From assembly GCA_025062415.1 (NCBI GenBank), contig JANXAH010000035.1, positions 1 through 41,363 on the forward strand: a stretch of DNA of 41,363 nucleotides, read 5' to 3'. Below the pieces are notes generated by a model. That model saw only the letters and a program-made list of their open reading frames with translations. It did no database searches and was not told where the DNA came from. Both the position numbers and the translations under genes were made by a program. Positions 1-16,710 of the stretch are shown one piece after another. Position 1 is the first letter of the stretch. Each line of letters opens with the position of its first letter. The DNA comes from Anaerolineae bacterium (lineage in GTDB: Bacteria; Chloroflexota; Anaerolineae; B4-G1; DUEL01).

Positions 1-1104
1 TGGAGTCCCTGTGACGATGGGCACGGGGACGGGCGTCGGCGTCGGGGTGGAGGGAGGGAGAATCTGGCAGCGGGAGACCCCCCAGCCGCTCAGGACGAAG
101 ATGGCCAGGGCTGCGCCGCTGGCGACGGTGCGCCGGGCCCATGCCCCCCAGTCGGGGGGAACAGGCACCCGCTCCAGGGCCAGGCGCATCTCCCGGGCCG
201 AGGAAAAGCGCTGATCCGGGTCTTTTTCCAGGGCCCGCAGGACGATTTCCTCCAGCAGCGGCGGGATGGCCGGGCGAATCTGCCGGGGAGGCAGAGGCCG
301 ATACTGGGGGTCCACGATCAGTGCGATGTTCTCAAAGGGGAGCCGTCCCGTCAGCATCTCATAGAGGACGATACCCAGGGAGAAGAGATCGGTGCGGACA
401 TCCACCGGACGGCCCCGACGGGTCGTCTCCAGAGCCTGTTCGGGGGAGACGTATTCCGGGGTGGCAACGCCCAGGAGACCAAAGCGGGGATAGCGCAGGT
501 CCCGGGCGATGCCGAAGTCGCACAGGACAGCATGAGGGACACTGCTGCGCAGGTAGTTGAAGGAGCGCTTCCGGAAGAGGATGTTCCCCGGCTTGATATC
601 CAGGTTGATGACGAAACGCTCGTGGATGTGCTCCAGGGCAGAGACCAGTTGACGGGCGATCCCGACGGCTTCCAGCAGGTGCAGGGGGTGTTCCTCCCCG
701 TTGGCTGGAGGCCGCAGGATGTCGGTCAGCGTGGTGGGGCGGCAGAGGTGTTTCTGCAGCGAGCCTCCGGTCAGCAGTTCCATCGTGTAGTACCACCCTG
801 GGCCAAAGGGGAAGTCCCCGCGCGCAGCGTAGACGAACTTATGGTAGCCCAGAATCGGGTAAATGCGCACCACGTTGGGGTGGTCAAAGCGAGAGAGGTA
901 GTCGGCCTCGGCGACCAGGGCGGCCTGGTGTTCCGGCTTGGCGACCTTCATCGCCATCCGGATGGGGAACCCAGGGCGGCGGTACTTTTCCCGGACCTCC
1001 ACCTCAAAGACGCGCGCCATCCCGCCCCGCCCGCGGAAGCCCCGGACGATGCGGTAGGGGCCCACAACAGTTCCGGGAATAAGTTGGTCCAGTTCCTGGC
1101 TCAT
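1..1104 (-). CDS. Ser/Thr protein kinase with C-terminal TM and Thr-Pro-rich tail (truncated by the left window edge)
   Basis: Not in ORF track (runs off edge). Reading minus strand from ATG at 1104: MSQELDQLIPGTVVGPYRIVRGFRGRGGMARVFEVEVREKYRRPGFPIRMAMKVAKPEH...VINLDIKPGNILF...VLCDFGIARD...ATPEYVSPEQAL...RTDLFSLGIVLYEMLTGRLPF...RRTVASGAALAIFVLSGWGV...LPPSTPTPTPVPVPIVTGTP. Glycine loop, AMK lysine, catalytic D, DFG and APE-like motifs present. Confidence 0.9.
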   Translation of the reverse strand, partial: MSQELDQLIPGTVVGPYRIVRGFRGRGGMARVFEVEVREKYRRPGFPIRMAMKVAKPEHQAALVAEADYLSRFDHPNVVRIYPILGYHKFVYAARGDFPFGPGWYYTMELLTGGSLQKHLCRPTTLTDILRPPANGEEHPLHLLEAVGIARQLVSALEHIHERFVINLDIKPGNILFRKRSFNYLRSSVPHAVLCDFGIARDLRYPRFGLLGVATPEYVSPEQALETTRRGRPVDVRTDLFSLGIVLYEMLTGRLPFENIALIVDPQYRPLPPRQIRPAIPPLLEEIVLRALEKDPDQRFSSAREMRLALERVPVPPDWGAWARRTVASGAALAIFVLSGWGVSRCQILPPSTPTPTPVPVPIVTGTP

Positions 1105-1109
1105 ATCCT

Positions 1110-3170
1110 CTACGGCACCACTTTTCGGGTGGGCCCGCCAGTCTGTGGAGTTCCTGGAGAGGGGGGAGAGGCTGGCGGGGCTCCCGGGCTCGGGTAGGGG
1201 TGAGTGGGGGGAGCACCGGTAGACGGTGGGGGCATCGGGCCCGGATGGGGCGGAGATGGAGGCCCACCGGGGCCAGGCGGCGGAGGCACGACGCCGGGTT
1301 GCTGGATTTGCCGGGTCGTTCCGCCCACGCGCTTGAACTGCAGGCGGGTCATCCCTACCTCAATGATCGCATCCGGCTGAAGCAGGATGCGGGTGTGGGG
1401 CGGAATCGGCATCCCGTTGACCCGCGTCCCGTTTGTGCTCCCCTCGTCCACGATGTAGAACTGGGTCTGTTCCAGGTGGATGGAGAAGTGGGGATTGGAG
1501 ACGTACTCGTCGTAGAGGGCAAAGTCGCCGAACTGGGGGTCTCGGGCCACTTTGGTGACCGGTCCTGCGATAGGGATCTCCCGACCGGGGTTGGTGCCCT
1601 TGACGACCACCAGCCGGGCTACGGCAGGGGGTGTCGCCCCCAGGCGCCGGGTGACCCCTTTGAGAACTCCTGTCGTTCCAGTGACGATGCGCTGGGCCAG
1701 TTGGGAGCGGGTCCGCAGCAGCACCGCCAGCAGGACCAGCAGGCCCAGCAGCAGGGCAAACAGCAGCATAAGGATCCACCAGTACATCCCCAGCCAGAGC
1801 AGCGCGCGCCGGAGGAAGGGAAGGGGCTCCCAGGTGACCTGGATTCTCACCGGTTGGCTGGTGATGCGGACATCCAGATAAGGGTCGTCGGCCTCGGCCT
1901 GGAGGGTGTACTCCTGGCTGGGGGCATGCAGGGAGGGGCGGACCAGGGCTCCCAGGTCCCAGGTAAACTCAAAGGAGGGAGGGGTTCCTCCTCGGCCGAT
2001 CAATTCCCCATTGGCGTAGTAGCGGACTTCCGTCGGGGTTCGGAAGACGCCATCGGTGGGCGCCACGGCTACGCTGAGAAGCAAGGTGCCCGTATATTGG
2101 CCAGCGGAGTAGGGGACAGTGACCGTCATCCCTTCGGTAGGGGCGGTCAGCGTTAGGCGCAAGGGCTCCAGGATGGAGTCAAAGGCGACCGACCGTTCGG
2201 CGGAGCCCAGGTCGGTATTGACGGTCACGTTCAGCGTGTAGCGTCCTTTCGGCTGGCGGGTGCGGTAAGTCAACACGTACTGATTCCGCTGAGTCATCAA
2301 CCGGTCAAAGAGGGCCAGGACAGCCTGGCGGGTGGGTTCGTCCCGGTGAATCTGATAGGCGCCACCCGTCTGGCTTGCCAGGCGGATCAGGTTCCCCTCC
2401 GCGTCCCGGCTGAGAACCCCGCCCTGGGGAGCCATCCCGATGGCATAGAGGGAGATGCCCGACTCGTTGGCCTTCCGGATGATGTCTTCCTCCCGTGCCC
2501 GATTGCTGAAGTTGGGGTCAATCCCGTCGGAGAAGACGACAATGACTTTGCGCCGGTGGGCAAGAACGTCCCGGATAACGGCGTCGGGGTTCTCTCGCAG
2601 TAGCCGCAGGGCCTCGTCCAGCCCCTCGTAGAGAGGGGTACCGCCGCGAACCGTCTCTCCTTCCATCTCTACCAGCGCATTGAGGACCAGGTTGATATCC
2701 ACCGGATTATACGTGAAGTTCTCCTCCGGTTGGAGTTTCCCTCCTTCGCCGACGCCCACAATGGCGATCACGTCGTCCTCCGGCGCGCCGGTGACGCTGA
2801 GCCGGTTGACCAGTTCCCGCACCAGGTCGGTGGCCTGCCGGATGCGCGGGTCGCCACGAGCGGAGATGCCGCCCCGGTCCACCACCACCACGATCGCCAG
2901 TCCCACGGGCCGGTAGGCCACCTCGGCCAGCGGGACCGTCGCGCCCGATTCCTGAACCAGGAAGGCGTCGGCGCCGAGGCCCTCTATGCTCTGGGAGAGT
3001 TGGGGGTCCAGGACGGAGGCGTAGATGCGCACCTCTGGCGGCGAGGAGATCGCATCGGGGGGGTGAAGGATCAGCAGGGGGCCAGGGGCCTGAGCCCGGG
3101 TGGTTCCGAACATCCCTCCGAACAGGACGAGAAGGGCCACCAGCCAGAGGAAGGTCTTGTTCGCATTCAT
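1110..3170 (-). CDS. Signal peptide - vWA domain - TM - FHA domain protein with Pro-rich C-terminal tail
   Basis: ORF 686 aa: N-terminal hydrophobic signal, vWA-like core (VVVVDRGGIS ... RGGTPLYEGLDEAL ... KVIVVFSDGIDPNF), TM WILMLLFALLLGLLVLLAVLL, FHA-like FYIVDEGSTNGTRVNG, tail PPPPGPGGPPSPPHPG... Confidence 0.85.
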   Translation of the reverse strand: MNANKTFLWLVALLVLFGGMFGTTRAQAPGPLLILHPPDAISSPPEVRIYASVLDPQLSQSIEGLGADAFLVQESGATVPLAEVAYRPVGLAIVVVVDRGGISARGDPRIRQATDLVRELVNRLSVTGAPEDDVIAIVGVGEGGKLQPEENFTYNPVDINLVLNALVEMEGETVRGGTPLYEGLDEALRLLRENPDAVIRDVLAHRRKVIVVFSDGIDPNFSNRAREEDIIRKANESGISLYAIGMAPQGGVLSRDAEGNLIRLASQTGGAYQIHRDEPTRQAVLALFDRLMTQRNQYVLTYRTRQPKGRYTLNVTVNTDLGSAERSVAFDSILEPLRLTLTAPTEGMTVTVPYSAGQYTGTLLLSVAVAPTDGVFRTPTEVRYYANGELIGRGGTPPSFEFTWDLGALVRPSLHAPSQEYTLQAEADDPYLDVRITSQPVRIQVTWEPLPFLRRALLWLGMYWWILMLLFALLLGLLVLLAVLLRTRSQLAQRIVTGTTGVLKGVTRRLGATPPAVARLVVVKGTNPGREIPIAGPVTKVARDPQFGDFALYDEYVSNPHFSIHLEQTQFYIVDEGSTNGTRVNGMPIPPHTRILLQPDAIIEVGMTRLQFKRVGGTTRQIQQPGVVPPPPGPGGPPSPPHPGPMPPPSTGAPPTHPYPSPGAPPASPPSPGTPQTGGPTRKVVP

Positions 3171-3248
3171 CTCTGTCCTCCGAAGCAGGGGTGGGGCAGA
3201 ACGTTGCTGTGGAAGGAGACGTCAAGAGGCGCTGATAACTTTAAATGG

Positions 3249-3277
3249 ATTATACACCTTCGCCGATGCTTGTGCAA
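3249..3277 (-). promoter_or_regulatory. Sigma70-like promoter for the vWA-FHA gene
   Basis: Minus strand TTGCAC - 17 nt - TATAAT about 75 nt upstream of ATG at 3170. Confidence 0.6.
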
Positions 3278-3318
3278 GTCGCACGGTGGCCAATTGCAAA
3301 TGGTCGTTCCATATAGCG

Positions 3319-3392
3319 GCCTCCATCAGCGGGTCGCAGGCTTCCTGAGGGGAGATGGGGGGCCACCAGATGTGCTGGATATGCCCGGCGGG
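3319..3392 (-). pseudogene. Decayed partial duplicate of the PP2C gene C-terminal segment
   Basis: Gapless match at offset 166 to 3485..3558 (about 60/74 identical by eye); reads HIQHIWWPPISPQEACDPLMEAA versus HIWHIWRTSTSPQEACDRLVEAA in the intact PP2C. Confidence 0.7.
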
Positions 3393-3413
3393 GCAACTGC
3401 TTGCAGTTGCCCC
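3390..3413 (-). terminator. Hairpin downstream of PP2C gene
   Basis: Perfect 10-bp stem GGGGCAACTG-cttg-CAGTTGCCCC just 3' of the PP2C stop at 3424; no clear T-tract. Confidence 0.45.
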
Positions 3414-3423
3414 ACCAACTCCT

Positions 3424-5178
3424 CTAACGTCCCACCTGAACGACGATGACGCTAATGTTATCCTCCCCTCCGGCACTGTTGGCCGCTTCCACCAGCCGGT
3501 CGCAAGCCTCCTGAGGGGAGGTGGAAGTCCGCCAGATGTGCCAGATATGCTCGTCGGGAACCATCCCGCTTAGCCCATCGCTGCAGAGCAGGAGGGCCTC
3601 GCCGGGCGCTAACCGGCGCTCAAAGAAATCCGCTTCCACCCGGGGCTTATCGCCAAGGGTGCGGTAGATAACATTTTTTTGAGGGTGGGTGGCGGCTTCT
3701 TCGCGGGTGATCTGGCCCGTGGCGACCAGGCGCTCCACCAGGGAGTGGTCCACGGTAATCTGCTCAATGCCGTCGGGACGGAGGTGGTAGGCCCGGCTGT
3801 CGCCAATGTTGGCAATAGTCGCCGCATCGCCCAGCATCAGCGCGACCACGAGGGTGGTGCCCATATCGGTTCCAGCGACCCGGCGCTGGTTGTAGATGGT
3901 CCAGTTGGCCTGCTGGATGACAGCAGAGAGCCACTCTCGGGGTGTGGGGAGGGGCTGTCCGGCCGCGTGGGGGGCCAGGATTTCGCCGCCGACCCGCTGA
4001 GCCAGGGTGCGGATCACTATCTGGCTGGCCACATCCCCTGCCTCGTGCCCGCCCATCCCGTCGGCGATGGCCGCAAGGGCGACGGGAATCCCCTGGGAGC
4101 GGAAGGCCATCACCGTCTGAAGGGCCAGCAGGCTATCTTCGTTGAGGGTCCGTTCCATTCCCACGTCGGTGCGGCAGCCCAGCGTCAGCGTGACGTGGGC
4201 GGGGCGACGCATCTGAGCCAGCCGTTCCTCCAGCATGGCGGCCACCTGACCAGCAGTGAGCGCTCCTGGGTTCGCCAGGACCCGGACAAGAACTTCCAGT
4301 TCCGGCGGGAATGGCCCTGGCCGTCGGAGGTCCCAGGCCCGGCCGGTCGCCAGGTACAGAAGGAGGGCGGCCATTCCAGCCAGGTCTCGGGCGAAATAGG
4401 CAGTGGCCCGGCTCTGCTCCGCAGCCGAAAGTACCTGGGCGTTCTCCAGGGAGAGCCAGAAGGCCCGATCTCCCTCCACACCGATCCGGCCCAGGTCCAT
4501 CTCGCCAAGCGTGATCCCTTGCCGGTGCAGGTGTTCCAGCGCGCGGGCCAGCGTGATTCCCCACTCCAGAACCCGAAGAGATTCTTGAGGAACGGGGAGG
4601 GAGGCAGCCAGCACAGGAAGGTGTTCCGTCTCCACAGCGTAGGCGCGAGGCGGGCCATAGGGGGCCTCGGTAAAGACCTCCCGGGGCAGGAAAAGGCCAG
4701 GATGGTCCACTCCGGCCTGGAGGAGGAGGGCCGGAACCACGAAGGCCCGCTCGTGCGCGCTCTCCCGCACCCGATAGCGCAGCAGAACGGGCGCTGCATC
4801 GGAGAGGTCGGCGCCGCAGGCGACGCAGAACCGTTCGTCCGGAGAGCGGACTTCCGCGCGACACTGGGGACACAGGCGGACGGGCTGCGTCTCTTCCACC
4901 AGGTACTCGTTCATTTGCTCCCCGGCTGCGCGCACCTCCAGCACCGCGTACTGCCCCTCCTTCAGCAGAGCCCCTTCCGGCAGGGGAGCGAAGGCGACGG
5001 GGGCGGGCAGAGGACGGGTAGGGACATCGGCAGTCTGGGCGTGGGATGACGTTGGGAGAAGAGGCTTTGTGGGCTGCCGGGAGGAGCGAATCCGGGAAGA
5101 GGCTTCCAGCGCTGCGCCGCAATTCTGGCAGAACCGCGCGCTGGGGCGGTTCTCCGCACCGCATCGGGAGCACCTCAT
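3424..5178 (-). CDS. Zinc-ribbon x2 - pseudokinase-like - PP2C Ser/Thr phosphatase
   Basis: True start probably MRCSRCGAENRPSARFCQNCG at 5178 (ATGA overlap with upstream gene); the ORF-track start at 5370 lies inside the upstream FHA gene. PP2C motifs: DVGMERTLNEDS, ADGMGGHEAGD, NIGDSRAY, LCSDGLSGM, GGEDNISVIVV. Middle region resembles a kinase C-lobe without catalytic motifs. Confidence 0.9.
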   Translation of the reverse strand: MRCSRCGAENRPSARFCQNCGAALEASSRIRSSRQPTKPLLPTSSHAQTADVPTRPLPAPVAFAPLPEGALLKEGQYAVLEVRAAGEQMNEYLVEETQPVRLCPQCRAEVRSPDERFCVACGADLSDAAPVLLRYRVRESAHERAFVVPALLLQAGVDHPGLFLPREVFTEAPYGPPRAYAVETEHLPVLAASLPVPQESLRVLEWGITLARALEHLHRQGITLGEMDLGRIGVEGDRAFWLSLENAQVLSAAEQSRATAYFARDLAGMAALLLYLATGRAWDLRRPGPFPPELEVLVRVLANPGALTAGQVAAMLEERLAQMRRPAHVTLTLGCRTDVGMERTLNEDSLLALQTVMAFRSQGIPVALAAIADGMGGHEAGDVASQIVIRTLAQRVGGEILAPHAAGQPLPTPREWLSAVIQQANWTIYNQRRVAGTDMGTTLVVALMLGDAATIANIGDSRAYHLRPDGIEQITVDHSLVERLVATGQITREEAATHPQKNVIYRTLGDKPRVEADFFERRLAPGEALLLCSDGLSGMVPDEHIWHIWRTSTSPQEACDRLVEAANSAGGEDNISVIVVQVGR

Positions 5179-5960
5179 GACACACCTCCTTCCCCGGTCC
5201 GAAAGATGAAGGTTACGCTGCCGATTTGGAGTTCCCAGCCATCCCGGAGTAGGTTGTGCCGGGTCCGGCGGCCGTTCACGTAGACGCCATTGGTGGAGCC
5301 CAGGTCTTCCACAGCCCAGTCGTTCCCCCGGCGGTAGAGGCGAGCGTGGCGGCGGGAGACAGTCTCCCATCCCGCGAACTCGGCGGTGATGACCAGATCG
5401 TTATCCGGCGCGCGCCCTATCGTCAGCGATTCCTTCTCCAAGGGCCAGCGAAAGCGCCGCCCGGCCAGGGTGGCCTCCAGCGAGGGTGGGGTGGGGGGAG
5501 TCGGGGGCAGGGGTCGGGTAGGCCTGCGGGGCCGGGGGCGCCTCCGGAACAGGGAGACCCCGATCAGAACCAGCAGCAGGAGGACCAGCAGCCCTGCGCA
5601 TCCCGCTCCGAACAGGGGCCAGTAGGGGACAAGCACTTGTATAATCCCTATCATCCCGGAGACGGTCGGGGTGGTCCCAGGCGTCGGCGAGGGTGTTGGG
5701 AGGAGCGGGACGGTCGGGGTAGGGGAGGGAGGGAGTTCGGTGGGGCTGGGGGAAGGGGATGGGGGAGTAGGAGAGGGCGTCTCGCTGGTCGGGGTCGCCG
5801 TTGGAGTGGGTTCCGGAGGGGGAGGGGGAGTGGCCGACGTGACTTCCGGCAACTGAAAGGTGGGCATCGGGGGTGGGGAGAACCCCACCACCAGCGCGAG
5901 GGAGGTCACGATGCCGAGGACCAGAAGAACCCGGAAAGCGGGAACACCGAAAGCGCTCAT
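5175..5960 (-). CDS. Membrane protein: N-terminal TM, Thr-Pro-rich extracellular linker, second TM, cytoplasmic FHA domain
   Basis: Start MSAFGVPAFRVLLVLGIVTSLALVVGF; linker [65 protein letters not shown]...VSRRHARLYRRGNDWAVEDLGSTNGVYVNG. Confidence 0.88.
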   Translation of the reverse strand: MSAFGVPAFRVLLVLGIVTSLALVVGFSPPPMPTFQLPEVTSATPPPPPEPTPTATPTSETPSPTPPSPSPSPTELPPSPTPTVPLLPTPSPTPGTTPTVSGMIGIIQVLVPYWPLFGAGCAGLLVLLLLVLIGVSLFRRRPRPRRPTRPLPPTPPTPPSLEATLAGRRFRWPLEKESLTIGRAPDNDLVITAEFAGWETVSRRHARLYRRGNDWAVEDLGSTNGVYVNGRRTRHNLLRDGWELQIGSVTFIFRTGEGGVS

Positions 5961-5986
5961 ACAGGCCTCCTGAGGAGAAACCTCGC

Positions 5987-6601
5987 TTACGGGGCGGCGT
6001 CCGTGAACACGCATCGGACCGCGCCAAAGCTGATCACATCGCCGGAGCGAAGGACATAGGGCTGATGCGGAGGGAGCATGGTGCCCCCCACGAACGTTCC
6101 GTTGCGGGAGGGGAGCGGGATCAGGACCCACCGGGTTCCCTGCTTGCGCAGCCGGGCATGGGTTCTGGAAACGGTCTCTCCGCCGGGCTGGGTAGAGAGG
6201 TCTATATCCGGCTGCTGTCCCCGTCGGGCATCCCCCCGGCCGACCAACAGTTCCGGCTTGCCCAGATGGTCCAGCAGAACCGGCTGGCCCGAGACAAACC
6301 GGAGGGAGGCCGAACCCCGAACGGGCCAACCGCTATGGTGAGACAACTGGAGGGAATACCGGATCAGTTCCAGCCGGTCTCCCATCTTCACCCCCAGTTC
6401 GTCCAGAGTCCGGCCGTCGGGAAAGGGCTGCCCTCTCCGGCCCAGGCGATACTCCACCAGCCAACCGGATACGGTGGTGGGAATCTGGAGGGCCTGGATC
6501 AGTGCCACCGTCAGATGCCGAACCGGCACATCTTCCGGGACTTCCAGGTCCCGGCTTCCCTGGAGGGGATCAGGGAGTTTCACCGTGATGACGACAGCCA
6601 T
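5987..6601 (-). CDS. EsaB/YukD-like ubiquitin-fold domain fused to FHA domain
   Basis: N-terminus MAVVITVKLPDPLQGSRDLEVPEDVPVRHLTVALIQALQIP...YRLGRRGQPFPDGRTLDELGVKMGDRLELI matches the YukD/EsaB beta-grasp pattern; C-terminus is a canonical FHA (LVGRGDARRG...VSRTHARLRKQGTRWVLIPLPSRNGTFVGG). Confidence 0.82.
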   Translation of the reverse strand: MAVVITVKLPDPLQGSRDLEVPEDVPVRHLTVALIQALQIPTTVSGWLVEYRLGRRGQPFPDGRTLDELGVKMGDRLELIRYSLQLSHHSGWPVRGSASLRFVSGQPVLLDHLGKPELLVGRGDARRGQQPDIDLSTQPGGETVSRTHARLRKQGTRWVLIPLPSRNGTFVGGTMLPPHQPYVLRSGDVISFGAVRCVFTDAAP

Positions 6602-6612
6602 ACCTGTTATAG

Positions 6613-6640
6613 AGTATACTCCTTACTGCCCGATTTGCAA
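6613..6640 (-). promoter_or_regulatory. Sigma70-like promoter for the UbL-FHA gene (near-leaderless)
   Basis: Minus strand TTGCAA - 16 nt - TATACT; predicted TSS about 5 nt from ATG at 6601. Confidence 0.55.
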
Positions 6641-6697
6641 ATTCTGGCTGTGTTGGTGAGGCATCGGCTCGCAGTTGTTCCCTTTCGGCTCCAGAAC

Positions 6698-6725
6698 TTG
6701 ACAATCGGCGGAAAGTCGCTATAAA
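6698..6725 (+). promoter_or_regulatory. Sigma70-like promoter for the WXG100 gene
   Basis: TTGACA (6698-6703) - 16 nt - TATAAA (6720-6725); strong RBS GAAGGAGG before ATG 6805. Confidence 0.65.
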
Positions 6726-6804
6726 AGAAGGTAGGGCTTTTCTCCAGAACTTTGTCTGCCGCCCAGACTGTATCGTTCCCCCAGACTTTAGAAGGAGGAC
6801 TGCC

Positions 6805-7083
6805 ATGGTGGAGATCCGCGTATCCCCCGAGCGGCTTCGCAGTGTCGCCAGCCAGCTGGAGCAGAAACGGCAGGAGGCCGACCAGATTCTGGCGACCATG
6901 ATTCAGACGGTCAACAACCTCAGCGGCGAGTGGACCGGCCTGGCTCAGGTGGACTACGCCAACATCTTCAACGAACGGGTGCCCGCGATGAGGACTAACC
7001 TCAGCGAAGTGCTGGAGAACCTGATCCGGGCCCTGCGCCACATCGCCGACGAGTTTGAACGGGTGGACCAGACGGTCATCTAA
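6805..7083 (+). CDS. WXG100 family (EsxA-like) protein, 92 aa
   Basis: MVEIRVSPERLRSVASQLEQKRQEADQILATMIQTVNNLSGEWTGLAQVDYANIFNERVPAMRTNLSEVLENLIRALRHIADEFERVDQTVI: central WTG turn between two helices, about 100 aa, C-terminal FERVD resembling YxxxD. Confidence 0.9.
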   Translation: MVEIRVSPERLRSVASQLEQKRQEADQILATMIQTVNNLSGEWTGLAQVDYANIFNERVPAMRTNLSEVLENLIRALRHIADEFERVDQTVI

Positions 7084-7094
7084 TGTAGCGACCA

Positions 7095-7130
7095 AACGTG
7101 CCAGGCGCTGCGGGAAGCGCCTGGCACGTT
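7095..7130. terminator. Bidirectional terminator-like hairpin between the WXG100 gene and the EccC/EssC gene
   Basis: Perfect 15-bp stem AACGTGCCAGGCGCT-gcggga-AGCGCCTGGCACGTT between convergent gene ends. Confidence 0.7.
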
Positions 7131-7153
7131 CCCTGCCTTCCGCTTTTCGTTTC

Positions 7154-10100
7154 TTATTCTTCAGGCCAGGCCGCCGGGGGCACTCCCACCTGGGTCCAGT
7201 GGTCGCGGATTTCTGTTGCCCGGCGGGCGATGGTATTCGCGTCGCCCGCAAAGGCTACCTGCACCATCTCCTCCTGGCCGTGGCGGGCAAGGAACCCTCG
7301 CCCTGCTACCATCCGGGTCAGGTCTGAGGCCCGGACGCGAACCCCCAGGGGGTTCTGGTCTCCCGCCTCCAGGGGCCGCAGGACAAACCCCGATCGCCAC
7401 AGCCGCACCTGTCTGGGCAGCGGGTCGCTGTATCCCACTCCCAGGTTGGGCAGCGGGCCCGCAAGAATGATGTGGAAATGGACGTCCCGGCCCCGTCGGG
7501 ACAGCAGGTCCAGCCCCTGCTGGATATCTCTCTCCCCGCTGAGCGCGTTGGAGAAGTCATCGTAGTCGTCCCAAACGGCCACAATGCGGGGCAACTGGTT
7601 TCCAGCAGAGATATCCTCGGCGAAGAGAGCGTCCCGCCGGTGGATCTCCCGGATGATTCGGGCCATCGTTCCCTTTTGCTGGAAATCTCGGTAGGAGCGG
7701 GCGAACTCCAGAATGTGGGGGAGCCCGTCCAGGGGTTGGAGGCTGTTGCGGCGCCCGGAGATCAGGATGAACTGGACCTCCTGAGGCGAGTAGAGCGTCG
7801 CCAGGGCCAGCATCCAGGCCATCAGCAGACTCGTCTTTCCGCTCTGGGGGGTACCGGTGACCACGAAATCGGGGCCGTCCTCCACCAAATCTATCCACGT
7901 GGGGCGCAACCGGATGCTCTCCACACCGATGGGCACAGCCAAAGCCGAACCGGCTGGCCGCCCTCCGGCACGGGCCAGTAGATTGTCCAGGGGGAGCAAT
8001 TCCGGCATCGTCGCCACCGGCTCGGGCAGAGGGCCCTTCCAGGCCCGGCGCATCTCCGTGGCCAGTTGGCGCAGTTCCTTCGCTTGGGCCTCCTCGTCCT
8101 CCTCGTACCCGGGAGAAGCGGTCTGAAACTCCAGCGGGGGACGACCGTACCAGCCCCGGCCCGGGGGCATTGGGTCGTCCTTCCCCATCCGGGGACGCTG
8201 TCCCAGGATCAGGGAATACTCGTCCGGGTCCCCCAGGCGCAAAACCGCCCGACGGGCCACAACGCTGCTGATGGCCGCAGGGATCTCCCCAGGCCGGTCT
8301 CCCACCATCACCACGTGGATGTCGTAGTTTCCCCCCTCCCGCACCAGCCGAAGCAGGGTGCTGTATTCCTCCGGGAACTGCTGACGAAAGTCGCCGAACC
8401 CAGTTACCACCACCACCAGGGCCGGCGGCACATCGCCCGGCCTTTGCTGGCGCAACTGGCTCAGCCGGTCCACGTGAGCCCGATGGCAGAGTTCTATGCG
8501 GGCCTCCAGTTCGTCCTCCAGGCGGACCCAGGCCCGCCGGATCCGCTCCTCGTCCATCGGAGTGAAGACGCCCACCACGTGGGGCAGCGGTTCCAGAACT
8601 CGCAGCGCCTGCCCGCCAAAGTCCACCAGGTAGAAATGGACCTCCTCCGGGGTGTGGGTCCGGGCAAGGCTGACGACCAGAGTGCGCAGCCACATCTCTT
8701 TGCCCGAAGCGGGAGCCCCGATCACCAGCAGGTGTCCGTCCTGGTCTCCCAGGTCCAGCCGCCAGGGCTCCTGTCGCTGATGGGCAGGGTCGTCCAGCAG
8801 GCCCAGGAGGGCCCGTAGCCAGGGGCGGTTGGGGAGGTCGGGGGCGCGCGGGGTGGGGGAGTCCGGCGGGGATAGGCTCTTCCCGCAGGACGCACAGAAG
8901 CGGGCTCCGATCCGAACGGCTCCCTGGCAGTGCGGGCAGCGGAGCGTCACAGGAGCCCCACAGCGGCCGCAGAAGCGGGCCCCTGGTCGGAGTGAGGCCC
9001 CACACTGACCGCAGAAGTGAGGCGGGCGGAGGCGGGGAAAGGGCTCAAACCACCACCCCTCTCCGTCCCATCCAGCCAGCCCCTCCTGTTTCAGTAGCTT
9101 GGGAAGGGGGATATGCGCCGGCAGTGGTTCCGGCCAGGGGCTGGAAAGTTTCTTCAGCCCCATGCGCCTGGCTATGGCGGCCAGGTGCTGGGTCACCACC
9201 TCCAGGTCCGTCCGAGCGGTTCCGGACTTCTGCTGGGGGAGAAACTTGCGGGAATCGTAGAGTTCTCGCCGTTCCCCTGTCGCCGTGACCTCCCGGATCA
9301 CGATGCGCTCGGTCGGCTGGCCGATCAGGGTGTCGGTATCTCCGGCAGCCCGATAGGTGCTGGCCACCCGTGCGACCTGAAAGAGTTCAAAGACCTCGTT
9401 ATCCCCCACCTGCAGGTAACCCCGACCCGGCATCCGGGGAAGGTAGGCGGCATCCGGTCGGCGAAGCATATCCTGGCTTTCCGCCGTATCCTCCACCCGC
9501 AGGCAGATACGAAAGCGGGAGTTGGCCCAGATTTGCTGGCTCACCTTCCCCCGCGGGCTCTGAGTCGCCAGGATCAGGTGGATCCCCAGCGACCGGCCGA
9601 CCCGGGCCACCCGGACCAGGCCGTCCATAAACTCCGGGTAGTCGGTGACCAGTTCCGCAAACTCGTCCACGATGATGACCACTCGGGGAAGGGGCTCCAT
9701 GCCCTGACCCTGTCGCTGCCAGTAAAGTTCCTGATAGCGGGCAATATCGTTGACGTTGAACTGGTTGAACAAATGTTCTCTGCGCTTGATCTCCGCCTCC
9801 AGTGCCACCAGGGCCCGCTCGGCCAGGTTGCCGCTGATATTGGTCACCAGCCCCAGGACGTGGGGAAGAGGGGCCAGAGGAGAAAACGCGCCGCCGCCCT
9901 TGAAGTCCACCAGAATGAAGCCCAGGTCGTGGGGATGGTGGCTCAGGGCCAGGCTGATCACCAAGGTCTGGAGCAGTTCGCTTTTGCCGGAGCCTGTAGT
10001 CCCGGCGATCAGTCCATGGGGGCCGTGACCGGTGTGGCTTAAGTCCAGCACCAGCGGCTGGCCGCCCTTTCGGACCCCCAGCACTGCCTTCAGCAGGCGG

Positions 10101-11461
10101 TCCGGGGCCCGCCGGGTCCACGCAGCCTGTGCATCGTACTGCTGGATATCCCGGATTCCCAGGACCTCCAGCAAGCGGATGCTGGAGGGAAGGGCTACCG
10201 CACTCTCCGGGGAGAAGACTCGCAGAGGCGCCAGAGCTCGGGCCAGACTCTCGCTCCAGAGGGGATCCACCTGATCGGGTGTACCAAAGAGGGGCGGGGC
10301 CGCCACACCCACCATCTGGATCATGACGGAGGCGGAAGACGAGACCTCCGCCACATACGCGCATCCCTGAGGCAGCCGGGACAGGTGGTCGGCCAGAAAA
10401 ATCGCCGTCGCGTTCAAATGTCGCCCTTCTGCCAGGAGCAGGTGGAGCGCCGGGTGATGCAGGTCCAACCGGTCGTCCTCCACCAGAAGGACCAGCCAGG
10501 GCCAGTCCGGCGGAGCACTGTCGGCGCGGCGGGAGGAGAGCCGATTCTTCCGCTCGCTCAGTTCGTCCAGCAGCCGGTGCAGCAGTTCCTGGGCAGAAGC
10601 GGCGTCGCAGGCCAGGTGGGGAAAGCGGACGTTCCCGTCCAGGACGTGGGTGTGAGGAAGCCACTTGAGCCACTCCCATTCTGGAACCCGCTGGGGGGAG
10701 TAGATGGCCAGCAGGTGGGCTTCGTCGGGAACGTGGTGGACGACCAGACTGGCGATAAGGGCCCGGGCCAGGCCATTGCGTAGGGGGAGGCTGCCAGTGA
10801 TCCCCAGCGGTCCGGCCCGCAGGTTCACCGTAAGGGGAACATCGGGCACCTGCTGGTACTCCGATTCCAGGTTCAGCACAGGCTGGTAGCGGGGGTCCGA
10901 GATCTCCGGGCGAGGTGCAGAAACTTTCACCGAAGAGGGAAGAGTGCCCACACCAATGCGAAGGCTCAGGAAATCCTCGTCGGTGGGGCGTCGCTCCCAG
11001 AGGCGGCGGTCCCGGTTCTGAGCCCGGATCAGCAGAATGTGGGGGTCCGGGTCCTTCTCCGTCCGAATGTGCTGTTGCCGGACCCGGAGTTGGTGGAGAT
11101 GCTGGGCGTATTGCTGGAGGGCCTGCTGGTAGGCCTGCTCTTTGGCCTCCTGTTCTCTCCGGTGTTGACGGCGCTGAGATTGAGTCCCCAGGATGCCTCC
11201 CAGGGCCGACATAATGGACATCGCCAGCATCCCCGCCGAGGCAAGATACTGCATCTTTCCCGGGCCATGGTCGCTGGCCAGGCCGCTGGCGAGTAGATAG
11301 ACGCCCACCATCAGCAGTACACCGGCCACCGGCAGGAGGGTGGTGTACCAGCTGAACCAGGGAGGCGGAGTAAGGGACGGAGGAGGTGGGAGTTTGACCT
11401 CTCCTGAGGGCAGCGGCTCCAGAATGCGCGGGGGACGGTTAAAATCTATCGTGGCGCTCAT
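7154..11461 (-). CDS. EccC/EssC-like type VII secretion FtsK/SpoIIIE ATPase, three P-loop domains with inserted zinc ribbons
   Basis: Start MSATIDFNRPPRILEPLPSGEVKLPPPP at 11461 (EccC-like N-terminus), two TMs, Walker A motifs GTTGSGKS, GAPASGKE and GTPQSGKT; Walker B VVIIVDEFAELV (D1) and IVAVWDDYDDF (D3); CGQCGASLRPGARFCGRCGAPVTLRCPHCQGAVRIGARFCASCG between D1 and D2. Confidence 0.93.
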   Translation of the reverse strand: MSATIDFNRPPRILEPLPSGEVKLPPPPSLTPPPWFSWYTTLLPVAGVLLMVGVYLLASGLASDHGPGKMQYLASAGMLAMSIMSALGGILGTQSQRRQHRREQEAKEQAYQQALQQYAQHLHQLRVRQQHIRTEKDPDPHILLIRAQNRDRRLWERRPTDEDFLSLRIGVGTLPSSVKVSAPRPEISDPRYQPVLNLESEYQQVPDVPLTVNLRAGPLGITGSLPLRNGLARALIASLVVHHVPDEAHLLAIYSPQRVPEWEWLKWLPHTHVLDGNVRFPHLACDAASAQELLHRLLDELSERKNRLSSRRADSAPPDWPWLVLLVEDDRLDLHHPALHLLLAEGRHLNATAIFLADHLSRLPQGCAYVAEVSSSASVMIQMVGVAAPPLFGTPDQVDPLWSESLARALAPLRVFSPESAVALPSSIRLLEVLGIRDIQQYDAQAAWTRRAPDRLLKAVLGVRKGGQPLVLDLSHTGHGPHGLIAGTTGSGKSELLQTLVISLALSHHPHDLGFILVDFKGGGAFSPLAPLPHVLGLVTNISGNLAERALVALEAEIKRREHLFNQFNVNDIARYQELYWQRQGQGMEPLPRVVIIVDEFAELVTDYPEFMDGLVRVARVGRSLGIHLILATQSPRGKVSQQIWANSRFRICLRVEDTAESQDMLRRPDAAYLPRMPGRGYLQVGDNEVFELFQVARVASTYRAAGDTDTLIGQPTERIVIREVTATGERRELYDSRKFLPQQKSGTARTDLEVVTQHLAAIARRMGLKKLSSPWPEPLPAHIPLPKLLKQEGLAGWDGEGWWFEPFPRLRPPHFCGQCGASLRPGARFCGRCGAPVTLRCPHCQGAVRIGARFCASCGKSLSPPDSPTPRAPDLPNRPWLRALLGLLDDPAHQRQEPWRLDLGDQDGHLLVIGAPASGKEMWLRTLVVSLARTHTPEEVHFYLVDFGGQALRVLEPLPHVVGVFTPMDEERIRRAWVRLEDELEARIELCHRAHVDRLSQLRQQRPGDVPPALVVVVTGFGDFRQQFPEEYSTLLRLVREGGNYDIHVVMVGDRPGEIPAAISSVVARRAVLRLGDPDEYSLILGQRPRMGKDDPMPPGRGWYGRPPLEFQTASPGYEEDEEAQAKELRQLATEMRRAWKGPLPEPVATMPELLPLDNLLARAGGRPAGSALAVPIGVESIRLRPTWIDLVEDGPDFVVTGTPQSGKTSLLMAWMLALATLYSPQEVQFILISGRRNSLQPLDGLPHILEFARSYRDFQQKGTMARIIREIHRRDALFAEDISAGNQLPRIVAVWDDYDDFSNALSGERDIQQGLDLLSRRGRDVHFHIILAGPLPNLGVGYSDPLPRQVRLWRSGFVLRPLEAGDQNPLGVRVRASDLTRMVAGRGFLARHGQEEMVQVAFAGDANTIARRATEIRDHWTQVGVPPAAWPEE

Positions 11462-11496
11462 CCGGACTCCTTGTCCCGTGGCGTCCACCTCATTAG

Positions 11497-11597: not shown

Positions 11598-11641
11598 ATA
11601 GGCCGGCGCAGGCCCCACACATGCCCCACCCTGCCGGAAGT

Positions 11642-11756: not shown

Positions 11757-12740
11757 ATGACCGATGTGACCCTCCGGGATGCCCTACAGAAGTTCCTGGA
11801 CGAGATCGCGGCCAGCCGCAGCCCCAACACCCACAAGGCCTACCGCCAGGCCGCGGCCCGCTTCGCCGAGGTTCTCTCCGCCCATGGCATCTCCCCTGCC
11901 CTGACCCCCGTCTCCGACCTCTCCGTAGAATGGATGGGCTGGTACATCCAGGACCTCCACAACGCCTCCGTCGCCACTGAACAACTGTACATCACCGCCC
12001 TCCGGGCCTTCTACGAGTACGCGGCCGCGCAGGAATGGGCCTCGGTCAACCTGCCCGCCCTGCATCGCCTCTGCCGCCGACGGGCCCGCCGGGAGGCAGC
12101 GCGACTGCCACCGTTTCCTCGCGCTGAAATAGAGAAAATTTTGGAGACCGTCGCCCAGGCCGCCGCTGCCCCACCCCAAGACGAGCGGAAACTCCTGCGA
12201 ATTTTAAGAGACCGTGCTCTACTTTATGTCCTGGCCGACACGGGCCTGCGGGTCTCCGAGGCCTGCTCCCTGACCCGCGGGCATATGGATTGGACGGAAG
12301 CGCGGGCGCGCGTCCTGGGAAAAGGCGGACGGGAGTCCATCGTCCGCTTCTCCGAACGGAGCCTTCGCTACCTGCGGGCCTACCTGGACGCCCGTGCCGA
12401 ACTGGACGGACGCCAGGGCCGTCCCCTGACCAGTTTGCCCCTCTTTGCCCGCCACGACCGGAGGGCCGGGAAACGGGTGCTCCCCCTCTCCGCCCGCTCC
12501 GCCGAGAAGGTCGTTGAGGAATGGGTTGTACGGGCGCTGGGCGAAAGAGCCCGCGGGACCATCACCCCCCACACCTTCCGTCATTATTTTGTGACCGTGG
12601 TCCTGCGGGGCAGCGGCGGCAACGTCCGGCTGGCCCAGGAACTGGCCCGCCACCGCAGCATCACCACCACCCAGCGCTATACCCACTTAAGCGACGACGA
12701 ACTGGACCGGGGATACCACGAGATTTTCAACGAAATGTAG
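11757..12740 (+). CDS. Tyrosine recombinase (XerC/XerD-like)
   Basis: Catalytic set: TGLRVSEA (R), GKGGRES (K), HTFRHYF (HxxR), LARHRSI (H), TQRYTHL (Y); N-terminal SAM-like core-binding domain. Confidence 0.9.
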   Translation: MTDVTLRDALQKFLDEIAASRSPNTHKAYRQAAARFAEVLSAHGISPALTPVSDLSVEWMGWYIQDLHNASVATEQLYITALRAFYEYAAAQEWASVNLPALHRLCRRRARREAARLPPFPRAEIEKILETVAQAAAAPPQDERKLLRILRDRALLYVLADTGLRVSEACSLTRGHMDWTEARARVLGKGGRESIVRFSERSLRYLRAYLDARAELDGRQGRPLTSLPLFARHDRRAGKRVLPLSARSAEKVVEEWVVRALGERARGTITPHTFRHYFVTVVLRGSGGNVRLAQELARHRSITTTQRYTHLSDDELDRGYHEIFNEM

Positions 12741-13505: not shown

Positions 13506-14558
13506 ATGGATACTGTTCGCCTGCTGAAACAACTTTCGGAGACTCCAGGGCTCCCTGGGCACGAGGAGCCGGTACGGGCCCTCGTCCGGGAACTGTGGGC
13601 CCCACTGGTAGATGAACTGCAGACCGATGGGCTCGGCAGTCTGATCGGTCGCCGATACGGAAGTGGCCCGGAACCTCGCCCGGCCCTGATGTTTGCCGCC
13701 CATATGGACGAAATTGGCCTGCGGGTGACCGGCATAGAGAAGGGCTTTTTGCGCGTGACCCGCGTGGGTGGGGCCGACCGCCGTATCTTGCCGGGCACAG
13801 AGGTCGTCGTCCACGGCCGGCGCGACCTTCCCGGCGTCGTCGGTATGCCCCCGCCCCACGTGATCCCCCCTGACCAACGGAATAAGACGCTCCCCTGGGA
13901 GGAACTGTTCGTGGACGTGGGACTGCCAGAGGAAGAGGTGAAGGCTCTCGTCCAGGTGGGAGACCCCATCTCCTTTCGGCGGGAGGCCGTGGAACTGAAG
14001 AACGGCCTGTTTTCCGGTAAGGCCCTGGACAATCGGGTCTCTGTGGCGGTGGTAACTCTGGCCCTGGAGCATCTCTTCCGCCTCTCCCATGCCTGGGATA
14101 TTGTCGCCGTAGCGACTGTGCAGGAGGAGGTGGGGCTCTATGGGGCTGCCACCGCGGCCTACGGCGTCGCTCCCGATATGGCTGTCGCCGTGGACGTGAC
14201 CTTTGGACGACAGGCCGGGGTCTCCAACCATCTGACTTTCCCCCTGGGTGAGGGCATCGCCATCGGCGTCGGCCCTAACTTCCACCCGGCGGTCGTGGAG
14301 CGGTTGAAGAAGACCGCCGAGGCTAACGAAATTCCCTACCACATAGACCCCATTCCGGGCCGCAGCGGCACCGACGCCTGGGCCATCCAGGTCAGCCGCG
14401 AGGGGATTCCCACTGGTCTGGTCTCCATCCCGCTCCGCTATATGCACCAGCCGGTGGAGATCGTTTCGGTGAAGGACGTGGACCGGGCCGGGCGACTGCT
14501 CGCTCTCCTCGCCGCCGGACTGGAGCCCGACTTCCGGCCCCGCTGGGAGGACGAGTAA
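13506..14558 (+). CDS. M42 family metallo-aminopeptidase (copy 1)
   Basis: AAHMDEIG, GKALDNRVSVAVV, VQEEVGLYGA, AVDVTFG, RYMHQPVE. Confidence 0.9.
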   Translation: MDTVRLLKQLSETPGLPGHEEPVRALVRELWAPLVDELQTDGLGSLIGRRYGSGPEPRPALMFAAHMDEIGLRVTGIEKGFLRVTRVGGADRRILPGTEVVVHGRRDLPGVVGMPPPHVIPPDQRNKTLPWEELFVDVGLPEEEVKALVQVGDPISFRREAVELKNGLFSGKALDNRVSVAVVTLALEHLFRLSHAWDIVAVATVQEEVGLYGAATAAYGVAPDMAVAVDVTFGRQAGVSNHLTFPLGEGIAIGVGPNFHPAVVERLKKTAEANEIPYHIDPIPGRSGTDAWAIQVSREGIPTGLVSIPLRYMHQPVEIVSVKDVDRAGRLLALLAAGLEPDFRPRWEDE

Positions 14559-14625
14559 GGGGTAAGCGGCCTCCGTACTACCGCCGACCACTTGATTGAA
14601 CAAAGAAGCCTGAGGTGAGCGAACT

Positions 14626-15660
14626 GTGGAACTCCTGAAGGAACTCTCTGAAGCCTTTGGCCCTTCTGGCTATGAGAAGGAGGTCCGGCAGGTTTTGCGC
14701 CGGACCTTGGAGGGATACGCCGACCGGATGTGGGTGGACGCGCTGGGGAACCTCCACGTCGTCCGGGAGGGGACGGCCCCGGAGCGCCTCCGGGTCTTGC
14801 TGGCGGCCCATATGGACGAGATCGGCCTGATGGTCGTGGGGCACGACGAATCCGGCGGGCTGCGGGTGAAGGCCATCGGCGGGATAGACGACCGGGTCCT
14901 GCCCGGCACCCAGGTCTGGGTGGGGCCCGACCGAATTCCCGGCGTCATCGGCCTCAAGCCCGTTCACCTGCTGGAGGAAGGGGAGGACGAGAGAGTCGTT
15001 AAAATAGAACAATTACTGGTGGACATCGGGGCGAAGGGGAAAGAGGAGGCTCAACGGTTGGCGCCTCTGGGAACCCCGATGGTCTTTGCCACCCGGTTTG
15101 AGTCCCTGGGTACGCTGGTCAAGGGGAAGTCCTTTGACGATCGGGCCGGATGCGCGGTGTTGGCGGAATTGGTGCGCGGCGACCGTCTGCCCCACGACCT
15201 GCACGCCGTCTTCACTGTACAGGAGGAGGTGGGGTTGCGGGGCGCGCGCGTGGCCGCCTACGCGGCCCGGCCCGACTGTGCCTTCGCACTGGAGGGAACC
15301 ATCGCCAACGACCTGCCCAAGAAGAAGGACGTCAGCCCGACTTCCGAACTGGGAAAGGGGCCGGCCATCACGGTGATGGACCGGACCTTCATCGCCCATC
15401 GGGGGCTGGTCCGCCTGCTGATGGAAACGGCGGAGACGCTGAATATCCCCTATCAGGTCAAGCAGCCGGGGATCGGCGGCACCGACTCCGGCGCGATCCA
15501 CCTGGCCCGCGAGGGCATCCCCTGTGGCACTGTTGCCGTCCCCTGCCGCTACATCCACAGTCCCGTCAGCCTGCTCTCCCCGAAGGACCTGGAAAACACG
15601 GTCTGGCTGATGCGGGAGAGCCTGGCCCGGCTGACGCGCAAAACTCTGGAATTCTCCTGA
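14626..15660 (+). CDS. M42 family metallo-aminopeptidase (copy 2), GTG start
   Basis: AAHMDEIGLMV, GKSFDDRAGCAVL, VQEEVGLRGA, ALEGTIANDLP, CRYIHSPVS. Confidence 0.9.
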   Translation: MELLKELSEAFGPSGYEKEVRQVLRRTLEGYADRMWVDALGNLHVVREGTAPERLRVLLAAHMDEIGLMVVGHDESGGLRVKAIGGIDDRVLPGTQVWVGPDRIPGVIGLKPVHLLEEGEDERVVKIEQLLVDIGAKGKEEAQRLAPLGTPMVFATRFESLGTLVKGKSFDDRAGCAVLAELVRGDRLPHDLHAVFTVQEEVGLRGARVAAYAARPDCAFALEGTIANDLPKKKDVSPTSELGKGPAITVMDRTFIAHRGLVRLLMETAETLNIPYQVKQPGIGGTDSGAIHLAREGIPCGTVAVPCRYIHSPVSLLSPKDLENTVWLMRESLARLTRKTLEFS

Positions 15661-15729
15661 TTCCCGTCGGACTAAAGGAGGTTTTAGCACATTATCGCCA
15701 TCCTGGCAATCCTTTCCGGAAGGAGACCT

Positions 15730-16710
15730 ATGTACGACCTGATCCGCAGATTGACCGAAGCCTACGGTCCATCGGGTTTTGAAGACAACATCCGCTCGGT
15801 TCTGCGTGCCGAAGTGGAGCCCTTCGCCGACGAAATCCGGGTGACCCCCCTGGGGAGCCTGGTCGCCGTCCGGCGGGGGAGTGGCAACGGGCGCCGTGTT
15901 CTGCTGGCGGCACATATGGACGAAATTGGCGTGATGGTCACCTATGTGGATGAGAAGGGTTTCCTGCGCTTTACCCCCATCGGCGGCGTCTCCCCACTCA
16001 CGTGTGTGGGCGCGCGCGTCCGCTTTGAGAATGGCACCTTAGGGGTCATCGGTGTGGAGAAGCGGGAGGACCCGAACAAACTCCCGACGTTTGAACAACT
16101 GTACATAGACGTGGGGGCGACCGGCCGCGCCGATTGTCCGGTTCGGGTGGGCGACGCGGCGGTTTTTGAGCGGCCCTTCGCCGCCCAGGGGCGACGGCTG
16201 GTCGCCAAAGCGATGGACGACCGCATTGGCTGCGCGGTGCTGGTGGAAACGCTGCGGCGGCTCCGCACGACGCCCCACGAGGTCCACTTCGTCTTCAGCG
16301 TCCAGGAGGAGACGACCCTCTCCGGCGCCCGGACGGCAGCCTATGGGATTGAGCCGGATATGGCCGTCGCCGTGGACGTGACGGGGACGGGGGACACGCC
16401 GGAGAGCCGACCGATGGCAGTGGAACTGGGCAAGGGGCCAGCCATCAAGGTCCAGGACGCGGGGATGATCGCCCACCCGATGGTTCGGGATTGGCTGGTG
16501 CGCGCGGCGGAGGCGGCAGGAGTGCCCTATCAGATGGAGGTCCTGGAGCGGGGAACGACCGATGCCGCAGCCATGCAACTGGTCCGCTCCGGCGTTCCAT
16601 CCGGCTGTCTCTCCATCCCCTGTCGGTACATCCACACTCCCAGCGAGATGGTGGATGGGGACGATGTGGAGATGGCCGTCCGGGTCCTTGTGCAGGCTCT
16701 ACAGATGTGA
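15730..16710 (+). CDS. M42 family metallo-aminopeptidase (copy 3)
   Basis: AAHMDEIGVMV, AKAMDDRIGCAVL, VQEETTLSGA, AVDVTGTGDTPES, CRYIHTPSE. Confidence 0.9.
   Translation: MYDLIRRLTEAYGPSGFEDNIRSVLRAEVEPFADEIRVTPLGSLVAVRRGSGNGRRVLLAAHMDEIGVMVTYVDEKGFLRFTPIGGVSPLTCVGARVRFENGTLGVIGVEKREDPNKLPTFEQLYIDVGATGRADCPVRVGDAAVFERPFAAQGRRLVAKAMDDRIGCAVLVETLRRLRTTPHEVHFVFSVQEETTLSGARTAAYGIEPDMAVAVDVTGTGDTPESRPMAVELGKGPAIKVQDAGMIAHPMVRDWLVRAAEAAGVPYQMEVLERGTTDAAAMQLVRSGVPSGCLSIPCRYIHTPSEMVDGDDVEMAVRVLVQALQM

What the first reader, a model, noticed from the sequence alone, without database searches (positions are those of the whole stretch)
1..11461. Compact type VII-like secretion locus wired into a Ser/Thr phospho-signalling module
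A WXG100 protein, an EccC/EssC ATPase and a YukD/EsaB-like protein define a T7SS-type locus. In the same 11 kb are a membrane Ser/Thr kinase (writer), a PP2C with all metal-binding motifs intact (eraser), and three FHA proteins (readers): vWA-TM-FHA, TM-linker-TM-FHA, and UbL-FHA. Firmicute EssC proteins usually carry N-terminal FHA domains; here the ATPase has none and FHA is spread over three partner proteins. Inference: assembly or activity of this secretion machine is controlled by phospho-Thr-dependent docking.
Basis: partly seen in the sequence, partly recalled or inferred. Interest (0 to 1): 0.82.

Follow-up and report, generated by a model that had tools for sequence, protein, structure and literature searches.

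The report
Secretion core beside independent signalling operon
A bacterium of the phylum Chloroflexota carries a small type VII protein-secretion machine next to a Ser/Thr kinase-phosphatase signalling operon; the machine is real, but the signalling genes turn out to be a widespread independent unit, joined to the machine at most by one unusual ubiquitin-like/FHA adaptor protein.

Summary
HMMs confirm an EccC/EssC ATPase, a WXG100 protein, a YukD-FHA protein, a TM-linker-TM-FHA, a PP2C, a vWA-TM-FHA and a Ser/Thr kinase, although the WXG100 gene lies on the opposite strand with its own promoter-like site.

In the window's taxonomic order, the block TM-FHA / Zn-ribbon-pseudokinase-PP2C / vWA-TM-FHA (with the kinase next in the longer contigs) is a free-standing operon. 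It has no T7SS gene beside it in at least eight loci that extend upstream. Across 49 genomes, PP2C orthologues and EccC occur independently (both 6, EccC only 6, PP2C only 17, neither 20; p=1). The two T7SS-linked cassettes known (window, G432) do not form a clade.

Only the UbL-FHA protein tracks the T7SS: in the order it occurs solely in the two EccC-linked loci, heading the phospho-operon, with phosphothreonine-binding residues intact. I propose it as the adaptor between ATPase and cassette (unproven).

T7SS loci with kinases, phosphatases, vWA and FHA proteins, and the idea of phospho-control, were published in 2024 for Bacillota and Actinomycetota. This is a Chloroflexota variant with two new details: the UbL-FHA fusion and a separable cassette.

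The parts
7154..11464 (-). EccC/EssC-type FtsK/SpoIIIE ATPase with 3 ATPase domains and a double zinc ribbon (aa 816-864) between D1 and D2; no FHA domain. The ORF opens at 11629; the conserved N-terminus starts at about 11464
   Evidence: Walker A: D1 GTTGSGKS and D3 GTPQSGKT intact; D2 GAPASGKE deviates
6805..7083 (+). WXG100 protein, 92 aa, WTG motif, C-terminal FxxxD; probable secreted core substrate, on the opposite strand
   Evidence: PF06013 1.7e-14, TIGR03930; motifs
6698..6725 (+). promoter-like site of the WXG100 gene (TTGACA-16-TATAAA, 11 of 12); a weaker divergent site (TTTGCA-17-TATACT) at 6641 for the UbL-FHA operon
   Evidence: own scan; the minus-strand sites are also. Consensus match only
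7095..7130 (.). perfect hairpin between the convergent WXG100 and ATPase genes, terminator-like by position but with a poor U-tract
   Evidence: -34 kcal/mol; the strict terminator scan did not call it
5987..6601 (-). UbL(YukD/EsaB-like)-FHA fusion, 204 aa, pThr residues intact; candidate adaptor
   Evidence: In the order, a full-length orthologue occurs only in G432 beside EccC
5175..5960 (-). TM - Pro/Thr-rich extracytoplasmic linker - TM - FHA, 261 aa; stop overlaps the PP2C start (ATGA)
   Evidence: orthologues in free-standing cassettes
3424..5178 (-). zinc ribbon - pseudokinase (with an inserted zinc ribbon) - PP2C phosphatase, 584 aa
3316..3392 (-). decayed tandem copy of the 3' end of the PP2C gene
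   Evidence: 77 nt, 81% identical to 3482-3558
1110..3170 (-). signal/TM - vWA - Ig-like - TM - FHA, 686 aa
   Evidence: orthologues in 18 further genomes of the order at E<=1e-10, some weak
1..1104 (-). membrane Ser/Thr kinase (NLD in place of HRD), C-terminal part lost at the contig end
   Evidence: 61-62% identical to kinases of free-standing cassettes

Best explanation
The locus is two units joined by an adaptor. Unit 1 is a minimal type VII secretion core of Chloroflexota: an EccC/EssC ATPase without FHA domains, a WXG100 substrate from its own promoter, and a YukD-like UbL. Unit 2 is a free-standing Ser/Thr phospho-signalling operon that many relatives carry without a T7SS: TM-FHA, Zn-ribbon-pseudokinase-PP2C, vWA-TM-FHA and a membrane kinase. 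The joint is the UbL-FHA protein, which heads the phospho-operon but belongs phyletically to the T7SS. Proposed mechanism: (i) the UbL docks on the ATPase, as the EccD UbL does on EccC domain 1 in ESX-5 (established for T7SSa, inferred here); (ii) the kinase phosphorylates Thr on itself or on its membrane partners, whose vWA and Pro/Thr-rich parts face outside and may sense the envelope (inferred); (iii) the intact FHA of UbL-FHA binds that pThr and tethers or activates the ATPase at the membrane (inferred); (iv) the PP2C reverses this (inferred). Shown: domains, gene order, intact motifs, independence of unit 2 from the T7SS, restriction of UbL-FHA to T7SS loci. Not shown: any phosphorylation, binding or secretion.
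For: All domains confirmed. The cassette was found without ECC, WXG or YUKD in at least 16 loci of the order, at least 8 of them with long upstream sequence and unrelated neighbours. EccC and PP2C-orthologue presence are independent. Trees put the window's PSK-PP2C and vWA-FHA next to a same-genus genome without detectable EccC (100/97 and 100/100). A full-length UbL-FHA orthologue exists only in G000 and G432 among 49 genomes, both EccC-linked, directly upstream of TM-FHA in both. FHA binding residues are intact in the window and nearly so in L071. Candidate substrates suggest that the family is a working T7SS: WXG-CHAP, WXG-calpain and WXG-M23 beside related ATPases, and WXG-RHS elsewhere in the window's own genome.
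Against: In the Chloroflexia-type lineage the FHA of UbL-FHA has lost the GR and N positions, as in EssC, so the FHA may act without phosphate. G412 has a window-clade EccC and a cassette with no UbL-FHA found in the genome. The AU test does not quite reject a common T7SS-linked cassette clade (p=0.055). The contig of the sister cassette in G420 starts just upstream of TM-FHA, so its upstream context is unknown and an assembly gap could hide a T7SS.
Confidence: 0.45

Rival explanations
1. Neighbours only: the phospho-cassette is a general envelope or stress signalling operon that happens to lie beside the T7SS core. UbL-FHA is a structural T7SS part whose FHA mediates phosphate-independent contacts, as EssC FHA does with EssB.
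For: Independence of PP2C-orthologue and EccC presence; free-standing cassettes; T7SS-linked copies do not group; degenerate FHA in the UbL-FHA of another lineage. In Bacillus subtilis the FHA-pseudokinase contact is phosphorylation-independent (PMC9600267). The window's genome holds several other kinase/FHA clusters (C58, C53, C189, C247), so chance adjacency is not rare.
Against: The same order UbL-FHA, TM-FHA, PSK-PP2C, vWA-FHA, KIN next to EccC occurs in two families. Only 26 bp separate UbL-FHA from TM-FHA, so they are probably co-transcribed. FHA residues are intact in the window. Kinases, FHA and vWA are enriched around Chloroflexota EccC.
Confidence: 0.33
2. One reading: a dedicated module in which kinase, phosphatase and all three FHA proteins are parts of the secretion machine and control its assembly.
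For: Published T7SSc, T7SSe and T7SSj carry kinase, phosphatase, vWA and/or FHA components (PMC11217815). Chloroflexia-type loci L091, L093 and L098 carry WXG-EccC-FHA-vWA-KIN, with PP2C in L093 and L098. Synteny in G432.
Against: The window's own cassette type is not T7SS-specific, its T7SS-linked copies are not a clade, and window-clade EccC loci exist without it.
Confidence: 0.17
3. Ancestral linkage with losses: the order's ancestor had T7SS, UbL-FHA and cassette in one locus, and most lineages later lost the T7SS part and kept the cassette.
For: Identical gene order in two families. A window cassette sister to a same-genus copy also fits vertical descent with T7SS loss.
Against: Free-standing cassettes sit in several different neighbourhoods (RecF, ribosomal proteins, MoxR/DUF58-like, read from sequence). 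G432 carries both a linked and an unlinked copy that are not sisters.
Confidence: 0.05

Closest known systems
T7SSc (TscA-G) of Bacillota, Garrett, Higginson and Palmer 2024 (PMC11217815)
   Same: Single WXG100, YukD-like protein, ATPase without FHA, membrane Ser/Thr kinase, PPM phosphatase and a vWA protein in one locus.
   Different: TscE is cytoplasmic vWA, whereas here vWA is extracytoplasmic and fused via a TM to FHA. Here UbL is fused to FHA, there are three FHA proteins, and zinc ribbons sit in the ATPase and PP2C. No EspG-like gene was recognised. The paper does not mention Chloroflexota. The kinase/PP2C/vWA block is separable from the T7SS here.
T7SSe / T7SSf / T7SSj (same paper)
   Same: Kinase and/or phosphatase plus a separate FHA protein; pThr control was proposed there.
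   Different: Their ATPases carry N-terminal FHA domains; here the ATPase has none.
T7SSb (Bacillus subtilis Yuk / S. aureus Ess)
   Same: The ATPase scores best with the EssC model; a YukD protein; a single WXG100; FHA and (pseudo)kinase domains in the system.
   Different: No EssB/YukC homologue was detected; the ATPase lacks FHA; the FHA residues for pThr are intact here but lost in EssC (PMC9600267).
T6SS threonine-phosphorylation pathway PpkA-Fha-PppA (PMC3953482)
   Same: Works-like analogue: kinase, FHA reader and PP2C at a secretion locus, pThr docking activates secretion.
   Different: Unrelated secretion machine; demonstrated experimentally there, only inferred here.
Kinase / PP2C / vWA / FHA clusters elsewhere in the same genomes (e.g. 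C189 here, G416 L186)
   Same: The same four kinds of domain in one operon without a secretion system.
   Different: Different subfamilies: no pseudokinase-PP2C, no TM-TM-FHA.

Membership tests
Type VII secretion system (general) | EccC/EssC FtsK-like ATPase with several ATPase domains and N-terminal TM pair | tested here: met
   TIGR03928, TIGR03924 and TIGR03925 above cut-offs; TMs at the N-terminus; PDB EccC/YukB matches
Type VII secretion system (general) | WXG100 protein encoded beside the ATPase | tested here: met
   PF06013 and TIGR03930; WXG100 genes near 25 of 32 Chloroflexota EccC loci v 0 of 20 controls
Type VII secretion system (general) | Secretion of the WXG100 protein | not testable with these tools
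   needs culture and a secretion assay
T7SSb | EssB/YukC pseudokinase membrane protein | tested here: not met
   PF10140 absent in 18 genomes including the window's; B. subtilis control rings
T7SSb | N-terminal FHA domains on the ATPase | tested here: not met
   no FHA hit in the ATPase
T7SSa | EccB membrane component | tested here: inconclusive
   PF05108: no hit in 9 genomes, but no control genome rang either
T7SSc | single WXG100, YukD-like protein, FHA-less ATPase | tested here: met
   but YukD is fused to FHA
T7SSc | membrane kinase TscD and PPM phosphatase TscF | tested here: met
   but these belong to a separable operon
T7SSc | cytoplasmic vWA protein TscE without TM | tested here: not met
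   vWA protein has an N-terminal TM/signal and a second TM, and is fused to FHA
T7SSc | EspG-like TscG | not tested
   recognisable only by fold; no unassigned gene lies between the listed ones, but the contig ends in the kinase
T7SSc | ATPase clusters with T7SSa EccC rather than T7SSb EssC | tested here: inconclusive
   window clade lies weakly on the Bacillota side; no confirmed T7SSc reference in the tree
pThr signalling module | catalytic and binding residues intact | tested here: met
   PP2C motifs and kinase K/D/N/DFG; FHA R/S/H/N. The kinase has NLD for HRD
pThr control of this T7SS | phospho-genes conserved with the ATPase across relatives | tested here: not met
   PP2C-orthologue presence independent of EccC, p=1; only UbL-FHA is restricted to T7SS loci

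The most novel reading that the evidence does not exclude
A ubiquitin-like/FHA fusion acts as a plug-in adaptor that connects a type VII secretion ATPase to whichever resident Ser/Thr phospho-cassette lies nearby. T7SS control by phosphothreonine would then have arisen by recruiting an independent signalling operon. The phosphate-independent FHA of EssC and pseudokinase of T7SSb EssB would be later, fossilised forms of such a connection.
Probability: 0.2. Interest if true: 0.75.

Novelty: new variant of a known kind. Interest (0 to 1): 0.42.

Why it matters
Published T7SS surveys cover Bacillota and Actinomycetota. Here 77 of 399 sampled Chloroflexota genomes carry EccC-like ATPases in several lineages, with WXG-fused hydrolases as likely substrates. 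The locus gives a two-protein test (UbL-FHA with ATPase, UbL-FHA with pThr) of how phosphorylation could gate a T7SS. It also warns that kinase/phosphatase/FHA genes beside a T7SS need not belong to it, a caution that applies to neighbourhood-based definitions of T7SS subtypes.

Tried and rejected
EssB/YukC homologue among the kinases: PF10140 absent. EccB: nothing found, but the control was silent. Structure prediction of UbL-FHA and of the pseudokinase region without alignments gave pLDDT about 45, so no fold search was run; the pseudokinase call rests on hhalign. The idea that the neighbouring tyrosine recombinase (11757-12740) marks a mobile island was dropped: it is a single-copy core gene in all 8 genomes of the genus, elsewhere in the chromosome with no T7SS beside it. 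Bacillus and Paenibacillus hits L177-L182, at least the 785-aa one checked in L177, look like SpoIIIE/FtsK rather than T7SS and were left out of the tree. Paenibacillus L105 lacks kinase, PP2C and vWA and was not usable as a T7SSc reference.
Full report
What is there. The window is one whole contig (C106) of a 2.70 Mb draft genome, 93% complete. The phylum is Chloroflexota: the EccC of G145, a 'same phylum' genome, is identical to that of a record titled Chloroflexota. Within 1-11464 the genes read, from the ATPase down: ATPase (-), WXG100 (+), UbL-FHA (-), TM-linker-TM-FHA (-), Zn-ribbon-pseudokinase-PP2C (-), vWA-TM-FHA (-), kinase (-, cut by the contig end). The ATPase is the only full EccC-type gene in the genome; a second WXG100 site lies on contig C247.

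The WXG100 gene is divergent from UbL-FHA and convergent with the ATPase. It has a strong promoter-like site of its own and a perfect hairpin between the two stop codons (the strict terminator scan did not call it). TM-FHA and PP2C overlap by ATGA, UbL-FHA and TM-FHA are 26 bp apart, and vWA-FHA and kinase are 5 bp apart. So UbL-FHA through kinase look like one operon (with a 253-bp gap before vWA-FHA that holds a decayed PP2C copy), while the ATPase is a separate unit. The middle of the PP2C protein is a pseudokinase with an inserted zinc ribbon: hhalign of 14 orthologues against 8 kinases gives 98.3% probability, and the catalytic Asp, Lys and Asn are replaced. The kinase keeps Lys, Asp, Asn and DFG but reads NLD for HRD, as do its orthologues.

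Survey of the phylum. EccC-like genes occur in 77 of 399 sampled Chloroflexota genomes and in 12 of 49 genomes of the window's order. They form several lineages. The window's clade (G419, G424, G411-G413) is supported at 98 and lies, weakly, on the Bacillota side of the tree; an ESX-like group, a Chloroflexia-type group and others are separate. YukD-FHA fusions sit beside EccC in ten of the surveyed loci besides the window, mostly in the Chloroflexia-type lineage. There the FHA is degenerate: the GR is missing and the STN-type Asn is replaced, and the domains score weakly or not at all in Pfam. Against 20 random 20-kb regions from the same genomes, EccC loci are enriched for WXG100, YukD, kinase, FHA and vWA but not for PP2C. 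Only 20 control regions were used, and their contigs were chosen for length.

The decisive test. A search for the pseudokinase region found orthologues in about half of the 49 genomes of the order, most of them without EccC. Regions fetched around them show the block TM-FHA, ZnR-PSK-PP2C, vWA-TM-FHA, and in the longer ones kinase and PP2C, with no ATPase, WXG100 or YukD. Upstream neighbours are ordinary and differ by lineage. Co-occurrence of EccC and the PP2C orthologue is what chance gives: both 6, EccC only 6, PP2C only 17, neither 20, Fisher p=1 (counted; draft genomes, so some absences may be false). In G412 a window-clade EccC and a cassette lie on different contigs, the cassette beside ribosomal protein genes. 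Trees of PSK-PP2C and vWA-FHA place the window's genes next to those of G420, a same-genus genome without detectable EccC. The two T7SS-linked cassettes form a clade in none of 200 bootstrap trees; the AU test of one clade gave p=0.055, so this is strong but not final. G420's contig starts just before TM-FHA, so its upstream context is open. In the genus the flanking recombinase and M42 peptidase genes are core genes found elsewhere without T7SS genes, so the T7SS-cassette locus is accessory.

What tracks the T7SS. A full-length UbL-FHA orthologue was found only in G432 (39-42% identity), again between EccC and the cassette. It is therefore the one phospho-reader that belongs to the T7SS. EccD's UbL domain contacts EccC domain 1 in ESX-5 (stated in PMC11217815); an FHA with intact R, S, H and N can bind pThr by established FHA knowledge. 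The adaptor mechanism follows from these two facts but is inference.

Substrates. WXG100 N-termini are fused to CHAP (L071), calpain (L069) and M23 peptidase (L070) next to related ATPases, and to RHS repeats (1427 aa) with a partner WXG100 on contig C247 of the window's genome. This fits an antibacterial or cell-wall role. RHS proteins are accepted T7SS candidates (PMC11217815).

Relation to the literature. Kinase, phosphatase, vWA and FHA genes in T7SS loci, and possible phospho-control, were reported in 2024 for Bacillota and Actinomycetota (PMC11217815); that paper never mentions Chloroflexota. A 2006 survey linked YukD to FtsK-like ATPases and S/T kinases (PMC1779556). Reviews note only a few Chloroflexota WXG100 sequences. 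I found no report of a UbL-FHA fusion, but the library holds open-access papers only. The locus resembles T7SSc most, yet fails one tested T7SSc feature (cytoplasmic vWA), so I do not file it there.

Verdict. Observation confirmed; interpretation partly supported; new variant of a known kind. Confidence: T7SS core about 0.95; cassette is an independent unit about 0.9; UbL-FHA is a phospho-dependent adaptor about 0.4-0.45.

Noticed in passing
G000 contig C247 (L254, L041): Second, unlinked cluster in the same genome: FHA-FHA protein, several kinases (two with Zn ribbons), vWA, a WXG100 and a 1427-aa WXG-RHS protein, a likely T7SS-exported polymorphic toxin.
   Followed up: partly
window 3316-3392 and 3482-3558: Decayed tandem duplicate of the 3' end of the PP2C gene (77 nt, 81%) in the gap before vWA-FHA.
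   Followed up: partly
L071:4582-5859, L069:13987-15327, L070:2048-3100: WXG100 domains fused to CHAP, calpain and M23 peptidase next to EccC: a family of likely T7SS hydrolase effectors.
   Followed up: partly
G000 C189 (L257) and G416 C21 (L186): A different free-standing quartet, kinase, PP2C, vWA, ZnR-FHA, present in two genomes of the genus.
   Followed up: no
G005, G028, G160, G248, G255, G297: Genomes of the same class carry pairs of YukD-like genes about 1 kb apart although no EccC was found in them at E<=1e-30; what they belong to is unknown.
   Followed up: no
L070:15-1142: YukD-like domain followed by a CbiA/ParA-like P-loop domain in a T7SS locus: another UbL fusion (weak scores).
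   Followed up: no
window 13506-16710: Three tandem genes in one family of divergent (about 40-44%) copies, probably M42-type peptidases by inspection; the triplet is conserved in several genomes of the genus.
   Followed up: partly
L119 (uncultured bacterium AlinenLipids_bin-0794): A 2939-aa EccC followed by FHA, two vWA-FHA proteins and another FHA protein: a further phospho-rich T7SS locus.
   Followed up: no
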